Virus record (IMG/VR): IMGVR_UViG_3300047319_000152
Span: 1 to 32,260 of that record
Direction: 5' to 3' (one strand)
DNA: 32,260 nt
DNA from: a virus
A program made the position numbers and the translations under genes. How positions within the stretch are numbered: position 1 is the first letter of the stretch; each line of letters opens with the position of its first letter. The notes beneath the pieces are model-generated. The model had not been told where the DNA came from. It saw only the letters and a list, made by a program, of their open reading frames with translations, and ran no database searches. Shown in pieces: positions 1 through 27,224 of this stretch.

Positions 1-217
1 CTTTTAGGGTATTGAAGATTTCAATACCCATGCCAATACCGAAGCCTTCTTTTACAGATTCACCGAGCTTCTTACCGGCTCCTTCGGTCTTCTCAAATTC
101 TTCCTTCAACTGATTCGAAATCTGGGACACAGACTGTGCAATCTGCTGCATTGCAGGAGTTAGTTCGTCCCGCAACTTCAGATAAGCTGTCAGTGTACCA
201 ACGTCGATATCAGCCAT
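1..217 (-). CDS. Tape measure protein, N-terminal part (runs off the window)
   Basis: Open frame of 72 codons from an ATG at 217, continuing beyond position 1. It starts MADIDVGTLTAYLKLRDELT, followed by a Gln/Glu/Lys-rich amphipathic stretch typical of the helical start of phage tape measure proteins. Tape measure proteins set tail length and serve as scaffold for tail tube assembly. The start overlaps the stop of the frameshifted chaperone frame by 8 bases, and tape measure genes normally sit directly after the chaperone pair. The identification rests mostly on this gene order, since only the first 72 residues are visible. Confidence 0.72.
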   Translation of the reverse strand, partial: MADIDVGTLTAYLKLRDELTPAMQQIAQSVSQISNQLKEEFEKTEGAGKKLGESVKEGFGIGMGIEIFNTLK

Positions 218-1024
218 TTGAGTTCGCTTCCTCTTCCTGTTGAGCAGCGAATTTCATCGCTAGTTCCATGTCAGTCTCTTGAACCCGACGCATAAGATCC
301 GAGTTCTTCCATGCTTCGATGACTCCTGGGTTGTCGGTATCAAACGCTGCTTTGGCCTCGGCATACTTCAAAAGCCCAAGACAGAGTAACGAAGTCTGAT
401 CCGGGTCATCTTCAAGTTCCTCTAACACCGTTTTAGGCGAAAGGTGAAACTCTTTAGCGATTAACGCTGCTGACCAAAGTCTGAGAACTAACGAATTGGG
501 CTCTTCATCCCCGTCAAGAATTAGATGGAGGGCCCGGAGTCTTTTGACTCTTCTTCCTTCACCTGTACCTTCTTGGGAATAGACATATTCATGATTTCCA
601 TGAAGATGTCGTCCGCACGATCAGAAGTGAGTTCGTCCACTCCGGTTTCGGGCGCAGGCAAGGGATACGAAGGGTTGTTACACGACCAGCTCGCGATCCC
701 CATGCGAAGGATAGTGGGCCGATCGTAGGTCGCGTAAAACGCGGTCTTGCGCTCGTCGTCATCGAAGTCTTCGAACTTCTTGACCTTCGGCTTCTTCTCG
801 GCTTCCTGATCGACCTTGTTGCCTTCCGCCTTGAACACCTTGAGAAGTTCGGCTCCTGTGTTCTTCATCGACTTGATGTTCGTCTCCTGACGAATTTCCG
901 CGGCTTTCGTCAGGCTCTTGTGAGATAGCTTGCGGAGATTGACCGTGATGATGAATTCAACTCCGTCCGTAACTTCCACGTAATCGACCGTCTTCGTTTC
1001 TCGAAATGCGAACATGGCACCCAT
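210..1024 (-). CDS. Tail assembly chaperone, long form made by -1 frameshift (gpG-T type)
   Basis: The frame ending at 210 has no credible start of its own. Its only late candidate is a GTG at 428 without a ribosome binding site. The frame is open far upstream and overlaps the end of the 167-residue chaperone gene in the -1 frame. If the ribosome slips at the AAA codon at 544-542, the product is 161 residues of the short form plus 110 new ones, 271 in total. The new part includes DGDEEPNSL and a helical tail. In lambda-like siphoviruses the short and long chaperones load on the tape measure protein and help polymerise the tail tube. Position just before the tape measure gene fits. The slip itself is inferred. 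Confidence 0.7.
521..1024 (-). CDS. Tail assembly chaperone, short form (gpG type)
   Basis: 167 residues from an ATG at 1024, preceded by AAGGAG about six bases upstream. A second ATG three codons in is possible. The N-terminal part is beta-rich (KTVDYVEVTDGVEFIITVNL) and is followed by a Lys-rich helical segment. No catalytic motif is seen. It lies between the tail-tube genes and the tape measure gene, where siphoviruses keep their assembly chaperone. The protein is expected in the cytoplasm during assembly and not in the virion. The final six codons (DSGPSI) are replaced in the frameshifted long form. Confidence 0.72.
   Translation of the reverse strand: MGAMFAFRETKTVDYVEVTDGVEFIITVNLRKLSHKSLTKAAEIRQETNIKSMKNTGAELLKVFKAEGNKVDQEAEKKPKVKKFEDFDDDERKTAFYATYDRPTILRMGIASWSCNNPSYPLPAPETGVDELTSDRADDIFMEIMNMSIPKKVQVKEEESKDSGPSI
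540..560 (-). promoter_or_regulatory. Probable -1 programmed ribosomal frameshift site
   Basis: On the minus strand the zero-frame codons are TCA AAA GAC at 547-539. The lysine tRNA on AAA (544-542) can re-pair perfectly on AAA at 545-543, putting the ribosome in the frame that reads AGA next and ends at 210. A Shine-Dalgarno-like AAGGAAG at 559-553 lies about 9 bases upstream of the A run, the spacing that stimulates -1 slippage in bacterial dnaX. It is not a full X XXY YYZ heptamer, so efficiency may be modest. Confidence 0.55.
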
Positions 1025-1110: not shown

Positions 1111-1536
1111 TTACGTCCAGGCCACCGAGCCGGTGAACACGAGGGTCGCTTCGAACTTCGTGATCTTGCCGGCCACCGCGAGGACAGCGTAATCCTGCAC
1201 GAAGACGGTGCCTGTGAACGTTTTGGAGTTTCCGAACACCATGATAAACGCGCGAGGCGCCGTCTGAGGCGTCGGATCGGGCGTTCCAAGCACAACGTGA
1301 GTGCCCGTGGTTGCGGTATCGTCGAAGAACCCCGTGAGTTTCGCGGGATCAACCTTCTGGACACCGCTCGGAAGGTTCTTGTCCCAACTGTCGCCGAGTG
1401 CCGTGGCGAGTTCCAATGGGGACGTGATCTTCATTCCGCCGATGGTGAGAACGCCGGAAGTGATGACCCGGTTTACACCGCCACTATCCGCGATGGTAAC
1501 GGTGACTTCGGATGAACTGTGTTTTCCTGCCGCCAT
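1111..1536 (-). CDS. Tail tube-like structural protein, short paralogue
   Basis: 141 residues from an ATG at 1536 with AGGAGG upstream. Residues 48-85 closely match the next gene upstream: both carry LPSGVQKV followed by FFDDTA and a T/I-TG-H-LG stretch. The two genes are therefore paralogues. The short copy ends in a beta-rich segment (VAGKITKFEATLVFTGSVAW) similar to the end of the tube domain of the long copy. The position after the tail terminator and before the chaperone is that of major tail proteins. Which of the two forms the tube is not clear. Confidence 0.6.
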   Translation of the reverse strand: MAAGKHSSSEVTVTIADSGGVNRVITSGVLTIGGMKITSPLELATALGDSWDKNLPSGVQKVDPAKLTGFFDDTATTGTHVVLGTPDPTPQTAPRAFIMVFGNSKTFTGTVFVQDYAVLAVAGKITKFEATLVFTGSVAWT

Positions 1537-1555: not shown

Positions 1556-2566
1556 TTAGTAGCGAGCAAAACCGGCCATGTACTGAAGAGACGGACCCGA
1601 TCCAGCCCCGTTAAGAGCATGACTGGCGGCTAGATAACGCCGAACGGCTCCGGCCACGGACACGAGCTGAGCTGTTTGTGCAGCCGTGATGTTTGCGAAC
1701 GTTGCGAGTGTGACGAAAGTAGAGTTGTCGGTACTGTGAAGAAGAAGAACAGTCCAACTCGTGTAGCCACCGAGAGTAACGGCAACCACCTGGAGATAGG
1801 CACTACCTCCAAGGTTGGACATTGCCTGGAGAGCCGTTCCTCCCGTTCCACCAGCAACCGAGCAGTTCACAGGAACGCTGAAGGTTGTGGGAGAAATCAC
1901 GGTGACCGTTTGCACGCCGTTGATCGCGGCGTTACTGCCTGTGTTGCCGGCGATGAGAACGGTATCGTTCGTTGTCAGCTTGTGCGGGACTGACGTCGTG
2001 ATTACGGTCGGGTTTGCCTGCGTGTTCGACACGATCGGAATGGAGAAAGCATCGAACTGCGTGGTGTGGTCGATCGAGGAAGCCTTCGTATCTCCCGCTG
2101 CCGATTCGGCCGTGTTGGCGTGGACGATGAACCCCTGATCTGCCTGCCCCGAAACAGTGTGAGTAACGTTCTCTTTCGTGATCTTGCCGACCACCGAAAG
2201 CGCCTCGGAAACCGACAGAAAGTCACCCTGAATCCCCGTGAATGGCTTCCCGATGGTATTTCCCGCGTACTGCAAACAAACGATAGCGGGAACCGACTGA
2301 GGTGTCAGACCACCAGACTGCTGAGGACCAATCAACCCGAGAGCCGTGTGCATTCCGGTGATGGCCGTGTCGTCAAAGAAAGCCCCACCCTGTGTGAGTT
2401 CAACTTTCTGAACACCAGAAGGGAGCGTCTTCTCCCAAGCGTCGCCAACTCCGAATGCAGGCTCAGTTGCAGACGTTACCTTATGAGAAAGGTTCTGAAT
2501 GACGGCCGCGGTGAAGGGATACCCGTTGACCAGGAATCCGACCGACGCGCTGCTATACTTCCCCAT
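1556..2566 (-). CDS. Major tail protein, long paralogue with extra C-terminal domains
   Basis: 336 residues from an ATG at 2566 with GAGGTGACCG upstream. Residues about 1-160 form a tube-like domain shared with the shorter downstream gene (LPSGVQKV, FFDDTAITG). After it comes a segment around 183-245 with PTVITTSVPHKLTTNDTVLI, resembling the small beta domain common in phage tail and fibre proteins. A Ser/Ala/Gly-rich beta-type C-terminal domain follows. Likely a virion tail protein whose extra domains decorate the tube surface. Function is inferred from order and paralogy. Confidence 0.6.
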   Translation of the reverse strand: MGKYSSASVGFLVNGYPFTAAVIQNLSHKVTSATEPAFGVGDAWEKTLPSGVQKVELTQGGAFFDDTAITGMHTALGLIGPQQSGGLTPQSVPAIVCLQYAGNTIGKPFTGIQGDFLSVSEALSVVGKITKENVTHTVSGQADQGFIVHANTAESAAGDTKASSIDHTTQFDAFSIPIVSNTQANPTVITTSVPHKLTTNDTVLIAGNTGSNAAINGVQTVTVISPTTFSVPVNCSVAGGTGGTALQAMSNLGGSAYLQVVAVTLGGYTSWTVLLLHSTDNSTFVTLATFANITAAQTAQLVSVAGAVRRYLAASHALNGAGSGPSLQYMAGFARY

Positions 2567-25115: not shown

Positions 25116-25378
25116 GATTTTGTCTCCCACATAGTGCATCCAAAATCGGAACGTGTTTCCAATTCACCAGGAGATTCACAAGCGGCCAGTGTACCGTCTT
25201 TGATATCTTGCCAATGAATTTTCTTACAATTTCCTATTGGGAATCCTTTCTGATTTTGAATCGTGCCTTTACTCCAATACTTACAAGATCCACATGCAGG
25301 CATTGTCTGTCGTGAAATTCGTTCCATTGCTTCCGGGCCGATTGTAGCAAGGTTTAGATCCGAAAGGAGGATAGCCAT
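25112..25378 (-). CDS. Cys-rich small protein
   Basis: 88 residues from the ATG at 25378, which overlaps the stop of the thymidylate synthase gene by one base and has GGAGAG upstream. Longer starts would lie inside that gene. Five Cys: CGSCKYW, GNCKK, AACESPG and FGCTMWE, a pattern common in small phage proteins that bind metal. Coupled to both neighbours by overlaps. Function unknown. Confidence 0.65.
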   Translation of the reverse strand: MAILLSDLNLATIGPEAMERISRQTMPACGSCKYWSKGTIQNQKGFPIGNCKKIHWQDIKDGTLAACESPGELETRSDFGCTMWETKS

Positions 25379-26373
25379 TAGTGGTCTCTCCAGGTCCGAT
25401 AACGTCGTTCGAGCCATTGTGTTGCCCCAACGATCCAATCGTTGGTGACGTGAACCGACTTAGCGAGGGCGTTCAACGAAAATTCAAACCGATACGGTGG
25501 TGGATAAAGACGGTAACGTTGATGGGCCAACATGACTCGCCACACGGTGTCCATCCAAGGGGTATTGAATAGGTCTTCCCGTTGATCCTGTTCGTCCACG
25601 TTTTTCAGCAGGTCTAAGAGGCACCTGTCAGTGTTCTCGAAAGGAATTGGAATGGTGTCCAGATTGTCGTAGGGTTGAATGTCGAGCGACGTATCGTACT
25701 TCAACTTGTCGAGAGTCGAGATGTAGGCGTGCCAATTCACACTGACTTGAGAATACGTCCCCATCGGCACACCAATTCTCACCGCCATGTATTCCAGCAG
25801 AAAAGAGAAGTGAACCGCGTTCGCCCCGTAGCACCCAAGAACGATATCGTTGCTACGGCAAAAGACCACGAGATTTAGCTTACCGTCGTGACCGATTTGA
25901 AACGTAGCGGTATCGTTGCAAGGTATGTCACGAGAGTTAATGTCGAGGTCGTGAATGGCACTCCACATTTGGAGAACACAGCGTCGGTCTTCCGGATTCT
26001 TTTTGAGACGTTCGACGATCACGTCGAGCTGGTCGGTTCCGAACATCTTTCGCCAACGATACCCGTAGGCTCCGTGAAGAGTGGAAGTGTCGTCGCTGAA
26101 CTGGGAGAAGTTCTTGACGTAACGAAGAAGAGGATCAAGATCTCGTCTACCTGCCAGCATCCACATGGATTCGTATAGGTGAAAGAACGGATTTGCGTCT
26201 CGTTTTTCACCAAACAGCACACGCTCCCAGGGCCGGAGATAAACGGTAGTGACGGGATATGGAGAGACAAGTACTGGACCGTTACGGCTCCCACGTTCGA
26301 CTCCAATTTTGTTGATGACATTGTACGCGTGCTGAGCAGCGTCGTTTACGTTTCTGGCTTCGATGACGTACAT
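25378..26373 (-). CDS. Thymidylate synthase-fold enzyme, candidate dUMP hydroxymethylase
   Basis: 331 residues from the ATG at 26373 (TAATG overlap, GGAGG 12 bases upstream). Thymidylate synthase features: HLYESMWMLAGRRDLDPLL, YGYRWR at 103-108, catalytic C152 in RDIPCNDT, and CRSNDIVLGCYGANAVHFSF where N185 occupies the pyrimidine-recognition position, which favours dUMP over dCMP. Phage homologues with this GAN-V-H variant instead of P-F-N occur in modification clusters, so it may add a hydroxymethyl instead of a methyl group. The two activities cannot be separated by reading. Confidence 0.85.
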   Translation of the reverse strand: MYVIEARNVNDAAQHAYNVINKIGVERGSRNGPVLVSPYPVTTVYLRPWERVLFGEKRDANPFFHLYESMWMLAGRRDLDPLLRYVKNFSQFSDDTSTLHGAYGYRWRKMFGTDQLDVIVERLKKNPEDRRCVLQMWSAIHDLDINSRDIPCNDTATFQIGHDGKLNLVVFCRSNDIVLGCYGANAVHFSFLLEYMAVRIGVPMGTYSQVSVNWHAYISTLDKLKYDTSLDIQPYDNLDTIPIPFENTDRCLLDLLKNVDEQDQREDLFNTPWMDTVWRVMLAHQRYRLYPPPYRFEFSLNALAKSVHVTNDWIVGATQWLERRYRTWRDH

Positions 26374-27224
26374 TAGTACGAGTACCTCCGCTTTTGTGAC
26401 TGACCGTGGTTTGAGCGCTCCCATTTGTCGTATTCGCAGAGCCAGTGCTCAACTTCACGCATCTCCCAAGAACGCCACTCCTTAGGCCAATACGCAGAAT
26501 CTCCAGCCCTTGCAAGGAGTTCCTGCATCGACGGTTGAACATCGTCTTGGTCGATTTTGATTGTGTTGTCGTCGTGCGTGAGCCAGCTCAGCCCACGTTG
26601 GGCACCAGGACCCGGATTGGCCCACGTCATGATGTCAGGTGCCTTGTCCAGAAGGGGAGTCCAGCGAAGGTCGGAGACCAGCTCGTAGGCCATGAATCCG
26701 CCCATGTAGGGTAGGGTCTTGAGATGCTTCCACCAACCCTTGAGTCCTTCAAATCCGTAAATGGCAGTTCCCCAATTTCCGAGAAAGCCTTCCAGCATTG
26801 GGAGTGAAGTGTCAATGCACCACAAGATGCCATCCAGCTTGTTGCACCCTGCGGGAGAACTGACCATAAACGCACCAGTGACGAGTGGGCTCCACCCTTC
26901 GAGTCGCCGTCTCGCTTCTTCGGTGTTCCATTCACCACGAAGAAGATCAAGAATCATATCGTTGGTTTCAATTCGGTTGAACCAACGATAAATGAACGCC
27001 GACCGAAGCTGATGAAACAGTGGAGCCATCTTTAGTGGGTTGCGAACGTTCTCGCGAAAGTGAACGGTGGTCTTGTCGTCTTCGCGATGAACGTTGCAGA
27101 ATCGCCACGTCTTGAAGTGAGGGTCGAATGTCCACGGCGGAGGTTCTCCAGCTTCCCGTCGAAGTTTGATGTTGTAACGTTCCCGAGCCGTAGCGAAGAA
27201 CTGATTGACGTTTTCTTCTAACAT
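26373..27224 (-). CDS. aGPT-Pplase / 5-hmdU DNA kinase helical-domain protein
   Basis: 283 residues from an ATG at 27224. It bears the features of the thymine-hypermodification family: REAGEPPPWTFDPHFKTWRF, then NVHREDDKTTVHFREN, later GFMAYELVSDLRWTPLL, DIMTWANPGPGAQRGL. These match proteins annotated as alpha-glutamyl/putrescinyl-thymine pyrophosphorylase or HMUDK helical domain, a DNA-glycosylase-like helical fold acting on phosphorylated 5-hydroxymethyl-dU in DNA. It follows the P-loop kinase with a 7-base overlap and precedes the thymidylate synthase homologue, a conserved trio. Confidence 0.85.
   Translation of the reverse strand: MLEENVNQFFATARERYNIKLRREAGEPPPWTFDPHFKTWRFCNVHREDDKTTVHFRENVRNPLKMAPLFHQLRSAFIYRWFNRIETNDMILDLLRGEWNTEEARRRLEGWSPLVTGAFMVSSPAGCNKLDGILWCIDTSLPMLEGFLGNWGTAIYGFEGLKGWWKHLKTLPYMGGFMAYELVSDLRWTPLLDKAPDIMTWANPGPGAQRGLSWLTHDDNTIKIDQDDVQPSMQELLARAGDSAYWPKEWRSWEMREVEHWLCEYDKWERSNHGQSQKRRYSY

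What the first reader, a model, noticed from the sequence alone, without database searches (positions are those of the whole stretch)
210..1024. -1 frameshift fuses two tail-chaperone frames
The downstream frame has no good start, is open across the end of the first gene, and ends 8 bases into the tape measure gene. A tetranucleotide AAAA with an upstream AAGGAAG gives a plausible slip site at 545-541.
Basis: partly seen in the sequence, partly recalled or inferred. Interest (0 to 1): 0.6.

Follow-up and report, generated by a model that had tools for sequence, protein, structure and literature searches.

The report
Phage tail-chaperone frameshift, worn slip site
This phage almost certainly makes its long tail-assembly chaperone by letting some ribosomes slip back one letter, as many tailed phages do, but here the usual seven-letter slippery sequence has worn down to a run of four A's.

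Summary
On the minus strand, gene G (1024-521) is followed by a -1 frame (open 620-210) that ends 8 bases inside the tape-measure gene. The first AUG/GUG/UUG in that frame (GTG 428) lies 38 codons into a conserved helical domain, so initiation there cannot make the full product. I found 29 relatives of this G/T pair in IMG/VR, and six phages of a second chaperone family (four IMG/VR contigs, two named phages). T lies in the -1 frame in all but one relative where this could be scored. 26 of 29 carry a canonical X_XXY_YYZ heptamer, mostly A_AAA_AAC, at the homologous spot. The window does not: its homologous site is G_TCA_AAA_G, nested in a clade with canonical sites. Only the A-site lysine codon can re-pair perfectly (A_AAA). 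A Shine-Dalgarno-like AGGTGA lies 10 nt upstream and a positionally conserved but weak hairpin 6 nt downstream. The predicted G fold best matches the HK97 tail assembly chaperone. This is a lambda G/GT-type system in a new sequence family with an eroded slip site. No protein evidence exists, and no second assembly covers the site.

The parts
521..1024 (-). Gene G, short tail assembly chaperone (167 aa)
   Evidence: ORF. AlphaFold model pLDDT 72; best PDB match 2ob9_B, HK97 tail assembly chaperone, Z 4.8, next row 3.0. Sits between tail tube and tape measure.
210..620 (-). T frame, open in -1; the conserved T domain starts at 542
   Evidence: Open frame. T domain 542-213 aligns to relatives at 35-45% identity; model pLDDT 92.
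542..548 (-). Slip site G_TCA_AAA (tetramer A_AAA 545-542), followed by G
   Evidence: Homologous by ungapped alignment to A_AAA_AAC, G_GGA_AAA and C_CCA_AAA of relatives. Only perfect A-site re-pairing in the overlap.
559..564 (-). SD-like AGGTGA ending 10 nt before the heptamer
   Evidence: 6-nt contiguous complement of the 16S 3' end; 1.5% of this genome's codons have such an element at 8-14 nt.
553..559 (-).
   Evidence: Sequence; AAGGA is a 5-nt complement.
498..535 (-). Weak hairpin starting 6 nt after the heptamer (-12.2 kcal/mol)
   Evidence: Same start position in L005, L019, L061 and L066 with different sequences. In the window alone the downstream region folds no better than shuffles (z +0.8).
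521..523 (-). Zero-frame stop TAA, six codons after the slip site
   Evidence: Relatives mostly stop one codon after the heptamer.
426..428 (-). GTG, the first start-like codon in the T frame, judged not used
   Evidence: Lies 38 codons inside the conserved T domain, with no SD.
2..217 (-). Start of the tape-measure gene (runs off the window)
   Evidence: ATG 217; N-terminus similar by eye to that of the long ORF in L005 (MADIDVGTL.. / VADVNVGTI..).
1111..1536 (-). Small tail-tube-like protein (141 aa)
   Evidence: phrog_10528 major tail protein, weak E 0.005; paralogue of the next gene, 44% over 112 aa.
1556..2566 (-). Large tail-tube protein (336 aa)
   Evidence: phrog_9522 major tail protein, E 3e-10.

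Best explanation
This is a programmed -1 ribosomal frameshift that makes a minority GT fusion (about 271 aa) alongside the majority G protein (167 aa), as in lambda G/GT. Ribosomes reading ...GAG TCA AAA GAC... pause over an upstream SD-like purine stretch (AGGTGA/AAGGA) and possibly before a hairpin 6 nt downstream. The lysyl-tRNA on AAA (544-542) then slips one base onto the identical AAA (545-543), and translation continues AGA CTC CGG... (E-S-K|R-L-R-A-L-H...) through T to 212-210. The preceding seryl-tRNA on TCA cannot re-pair well, so this is mainly a single-tRNA Z_ZZN slip, a worn form of the tandem X_XXY_YYZ slip of its relatives. G would coat the tape measure and T would recruit tail-tube subunits. 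Shown: the reading frames, homology across the junction, conservation of T before any start, conserved -1 phase in relatives, loss of the X triplet. Inferred: that slippage occurs, its rate, the stimulators' roles, and protein function.
For: Fused W and L005 products align over 247 columns with no gap at the junction (32% identity, E 9e-40). T is in the -1 frame in all scorable relatives but one. A canonical heptamer sits at the homologous position in 26 of 29 family members and in all six of a sister chaperone family, against a background of 0.0012 per codon. A_AAA lies exactly there in the window, expected 0.04 in the whole overlap. T residues 1-38, before GTG 428, are conserved (z 9.9-14) and form two predicted helices. 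The G model's best PDB match is the HK97 tail assembly chaperone, Z 4.8 against 3.0 for the next row. Sister-family G proteins in the same gene position hit phrog_313, Tail assembly chaperone. Z_ZZN is the accepted minimal -1 site, and tRNA-Lys can slip singly (PMC5009743). A_AAA is the weakest of six active tetramers (0.26 to 5.6% with a pseudoknot in E. coli) but is well represented in IS elements (PMC4066793).
Against: The window has no X_XXY_YYZ heptamer with A or T as Y anywhere in G. A_AAA is the weakest of the six active tetramers in E. coli, and tetramers without a stimulator were barely shifty, whereas lambda's G:GT ratio is 30:1 (PMC5009743). The window's downstream region folds no better than shuffles (z +0.8). 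G and T have no family hit of their own. The window's terminal branch is long (1.09 against a median of 0.55). No second assembly covers the site.
Confidence: 0.88

Rival explanations
1. T is a separate protein started within its own frame (GTG 428, or a near-cognate such as ATT 521 at the G stop) by translational coupling.
For: GTG 428 exists in frame. AUU initiation coexists with frameshifting in IS911 (title in the reference list of PMC4066793).
Against: GTG 428 has no SD and would delete 38 conserved residues forming two helices. No ATG/GTG/TTG lies between the -1 stop at 621 and 428. Homology continues back to the slip codons. Relatives keep a slippery heptamer at this spot.
Confidence: 0.05
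2. The site is really a canonical heptamer and the GTC is an assembly or sequencing error, so this is an entirely ordinary tandem slip.
For: It is the only member of its clade without a canonical heptamer. No second assembly covers it.
Against: At least two substitutions would be needed (GTC against GGG or CCC). The zero frame also continues six codons, TCC where L019 has TGA, as L063 does with TCA. An indel is excluded because the -1 phase agrees with the relatives.
Confidence: 0.08
3. Tandem slippage still occurs at G_TCA_AAA, with the seryl-tRNA tolerating mismatches in the P site.
For: The tRNA reading UCA is a wide-wobble type (own knowledge). In NNA_AAG sites, 5' codons read by wobble-prone tRNAs raise frameshifting (PMC5009743). 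It gives the same protein.
Against: TCA to GTC re-pairs poorly (score 0.75 of 3).
Confidence: 0.25
4. The frameshift is being lost: the site has decayed and the GT fusion is made at too low a level to matter.
For: X triplet lost, weak hairpin, long branch.
Against: T remains open, is 35-45% identical to relatives with its core residues kept, and folds confidently in prediction.
Confidence: 0.07

Closest known systems
Phage lambda G/GT tail assembly chaperones (-1 frameshift; Xu, Hendrix and Duda 2004, cited in PMC5009743)
   Same: Gene order tail tube - G - T - tape measure, T in the -1 frame, slip near the end of G, T without its own start.
   Different: No recognisable sequence similarity to a described family. 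The lambda-type tandem heptamer (G_GGA_AAG, from own knowledge) is replaced by G_TCA_AAA.
Dinoroseobacter phage R5C and Pseudanabaena phage Pan1 (Nanhaivirus), G_GGA_AAC site
   Same: Related capsid (41-44%), same gene order, G then T in -1.
   Different: G and T belong to another sequence family (phrog_313; no profile similarity to the window family). Canonical heptamer. The shift is not annotated in either record.
IS1222 transposase (G_CGA_AAG) and other Z_ZZN tetramer sites of IS elements
   Same: Single A-site lysyl-tRNA slip on an A_AAR tetramer after a P-site codon that cannot re-pair (PMC5009743, PMC4066793).
   Different: Mobile-element transposase rather than a tail chaperone; AAG rather than the weaker AAA.
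HK97 tail assembly chaperone structure 2ob9
   Same: Best PDB match to the G model, Z 4.8, 84 of 104 residues.
   Different: 14% identity, and Z below 5, so a shared fold is likely but not proven.

Membership tests
Lambda-type G/GT tail assembly chaperone pair | Located between major tail (tube) gene and tape measure gene | tested here: met
   phrog_9522 tail protein upstream. The downstream gene at 217 is tape-measure-like by position and by its N-terminus, which resembles that of the long ORF in L005. Same order in R5C and Pan1 with annotated tape measures.
Lambda-type G/GT tail assembly chaperone pair | Second frame overlaps the end of G in a frameshift phase and lacks its own start | tested here: met
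   Open 620-210 in -1; first start GTG 428 is inside the conserved domain.
Lambda-type G/GT tail assembly chaperone pair | Frameshift phase conserved in homologues | tested here: met
   -1 in every scorable relative except L033, which is +1 or -2.
Lambda-type G/GT tail assembly chaperone pair | G has tail assembly chaperone fold | tested here: inconclusive
   Best match HK97 chaperone 2ob9_B Z 4.8, standing 1.8 above the next row; tail assembly chaperones also among weak viral matches.
Lambda-type G/GT tail assembly chaperone pair | Fusion protein made at a low fixed ratio | not testable with these tools
   Needs expression or mass spectrometry.
Tandem X_XXY_YYZ -1 frameshift site | Seven-base slippery heptamer in phase in the overlap | tested here: not met
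   None in the window's G and none among the scored overlap positions; homologous site is GTCAAAA.
Z_ZZN single-tRNA -1 frameshift site | In-phase Z_ZZN allowing perfect A-site re-pairing | tested here: met
   A_AAA at 545-542, the only such site in the overlap.
Z_ZZN single-tRNA -1 frameshift site | Stimulator (SD-like or RNA structure) | tested here: inconclusive
   AGGTGA at 10 nt (1.5% of codons by chance); hairpin at +6 conserved in position but weak in the window.
PHROG / Pfam tail assembly chaperone families | HMM match of G or T | tested here: not met
   G and T: no PHROG hit, no significant Pfam hit; two stray PHROG matches at E about 0.03-0.06 among six homologous G proteins. Sister-family G proteins match phrog_313.

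The most novel reading that the evidence does not exclude
A tail-chaperone -1 frameshift that has lost the tandem heptamer and runs on a single lysyl-tRNA slip at A_AAA, with the loss compensated by SD-like and structural stimulators; a natural intermediate showing how slip sites turn over.
Probability: 0.5. Interest if true: 0.42.

Novelty: new member of a known kind. Interest (0 to 1): 0.34.

Why it matters
The fusion sets the ratio of two chaperones that control tail assembly, and gene finders miss it: in the annotated relatives R5C and Pan1 the shift is not recorded. [quoted passage not shown] That makes it testable how far a programmed site can drift while the frameshift is kept, and whether a lysine A-site codon is what permits loss of the first triplet.

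Tried and rejected
Direct searches with G or T alone found nothing in viral contigs, phages or genome contigs. Relatives were reached through the capsid, T alignments and the small tail-tube protein. A second assembly of the slip site was sought and not found. Other slip points in the overlap were scored and rejected: GAAGGAA at 560, TATTCCC at 581 and CGGGCCC at 536 re-pair imperfectly. Transcriptional slippage was rejected because A4 is far too short (own knowledge). The T model has no trustworthy fold match. Profile comparison of the window G family with the phrog_313 family gave nothing, so their relation rests on position, phase and fold only. Rows L062 and L075 lack a detected G, so their phase is not verified. 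Whether lysine A-site variants form one clade was tested and is not supported (4 changes needed), although W lies inside the clade that holds all of them.

Full report
WHAT IS THERE. The window is a 32,260-base virus record. The structural genes run on the minus strand: terminase, portal-like protein, scaffold, P22-type capsid, connector and tail terminator proteins, two tail-tube proteins, then G, T and the start of the tape measure. G runs from ATG 1024 to TAA 523-521. The -1 frame is open from 620 to its stop at 212-210 and ends 8 bases inside the tape-measure gene, whose ATG is at 217.

WHY T MUST BE REACHED FROM G. Between the -1 stop at 621 and GTG 428 there is no ATG, GTG or TTG. GTG 428 has no Shine-Dalgarno sequence and lies 38 codons inside the T domain. 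Those 38 residues (RLRALHLILDGDEEPNSLVLRLWSAALIAKEFHLSPKT) are conserved in four relatives at z 9.9 to 14 against shuffles. They include 8 of the 18 invariant residues of the five-member alignment. In a confident model (pLDDT 92) they form the first two helices of the domain.

HOMOLOGUES. Direct searches with G or T found nothing, so I went through neighbours. The capsid gave L005 and others in IMG/VR, plus Dinoroseobacter phage R5C and Pseudanabaena phage Pan1. T alignments gave L019, L020 and L032. The small tail-tube protein gave L033 to L078. Profile searches of these loci give 29 relatives of the G/T pair, counting L027, which is cut off inside T, and L062 and L075, where only T was detected. 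The fused product of the window aligns to that of L005 over 247 columns with no gap at the junction: KEEESK|RLRALHLILD against QDVEKN|RLRALHQLLD. Where the phase can be scored, T is in -1 relative to G in every relative except L033. A second chaperone family (L007, L010, L011, L014, R5C, Pan1) has the same order and phase with canonical sites. Its G proteins match phrog_313, Tail assembly chaperone.

THE SLIP SITE. At the homologous position, 26 of 29 relatives carry an X_XXY_YYZ heptamer: mostly A_AAA_AAC, also A_AAA_AAA, G_GGA_AAA, G_GGA_AAC, C_CCA_AAA and C_CCT_TTG. One more (L043, near-identical to L044) has GGGGGAA, a motif that a published survey describes across the thousand 'fivetwo' sites of its phage set (PMC10274946). 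L053 has no motif, and L033 is in another phase. Such heptamers (with A or T as Y) occur elsewhere in these genomes at 0.0012 per codon. The window alone has G_TCA_AAA: L019 reads GAG GGA AAA GAC TGA GGG and the window reads GAG TCA AAA GAC TCC GGG. In a tree of fused G-T proteins the window sits inside a 100/99-supported clade of nine, all the others canonical, so the degenerate site is a derived loss. What is left is the A-site lysine codon on A_AAA, the only perfect re-pairing in the overlap. In-frame A_AAA is rare here, 10 in 8129 codons.

MECHANISM. The review PMC5009743 gives Z_ZZN as the minimal -1 site, with G_CGA_AAG of IS1222 as a working example. [quoted passage not shown] PMC4066793 ranks A_AAA last of six active tetramers in E. 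coli (the six ranged from 0.26 to 5.6% with a pseudoknot), but found it well represented in IS elements. A lysine codon in the A site, as in the window, could therefore tolerate loss of the X triplet where the asparagine codon of most relatives could not; this is inference. Possible helpers are AGGTGA, a 6-nt complement of the 16S tail ending 10 nt upstream (1.5% of codons by chance), and a hairpin starting 6 nt downstream. The hairpin starts at the same place in L005, L019, L061 and L066 with different sequences, but in the window the region folds no better than shuffles (z +0.8). The expected rate is probably below lambda's, unless the unknown host is more permissive.

FUNCTION. The G model (pLDDT 72) has the HK97 tail assembly chaperone 2ob9_B as its best PDB match: Z 4.8, 84 residues, rmsd 3.6, next row 3.0. 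Z is low in absolute terms, so this is support rather than proof. Neither G nor T has its own Pfam or PHROG family. Together with position and phase this makes the pair a lambda-type G/GT chaperone system in a sequence family that the libraries used here do not hold.

WHAT IS NOT SHOWN. No protein data exist. The host is unknown. No second assembly covers the slip site, so a two-base error at 547-546 cannot be excluded, although the extended zero-frame tail (TCC for TGA, as TCA in L063) argues that the region has genuinely drifted.

VERDICT. A programmed frameshift in tail-chaperone genes is textbook. The fresh points are the new sequence family, the unannotated relatives, and the worn slip site as a possible single-tRNA variant.

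Noticed in passing
window 1111-1536 and 1556-2566 (-): Two paralogous tail-tube proteins in tandem (44% identity over 112 aa). The pair is also present in L005 and L027 by BLAST, and apparently in L019, L020 and L032 by gene order and start sequences, suggesting tails built from or capped by two tube-like subunits.
   Followed up: partly
L033 2452-3209: In this relative T lies in the +1 (or -2) frame relative to G, at GTC CAA AAA GAG ACT with five A's: a different shift direction or a metagenome indel.
   Followed up: partly
L053, L054, L055 (T at L053 2393-3053): G and T are in the usual -1 arrangement but the overlap end (AAG GAT CAG CAG CGG GAC TGA) holds no slippery heptamer or suitable tetramer; how T is reached is unexplained.
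   Followed up: partly
window 25378-27224 (-): 5-hmdU DNA kinase helical-domain protein (PF18723) next to a thymidylate-synthase-like protein: the phage probably carries hypermodified thymine DNA.
   Followed up: no
L005 15068-15556: A protein with a GIY-YIG-like start (MIYALVHPDTLEIRYVGKTG...), possibly a homing endonuclease, is inserted between the tail tube and G genes.
   Followed up: no
L016 19108-19880 and L017 18581-19386 (phages R5C and Pan1): Public records do not annotate the G-T frameshift: R5C lists two separate proteins, and Pan1 lists only the first plus a tape measure whose start overlaps T.
   Followed up: yes
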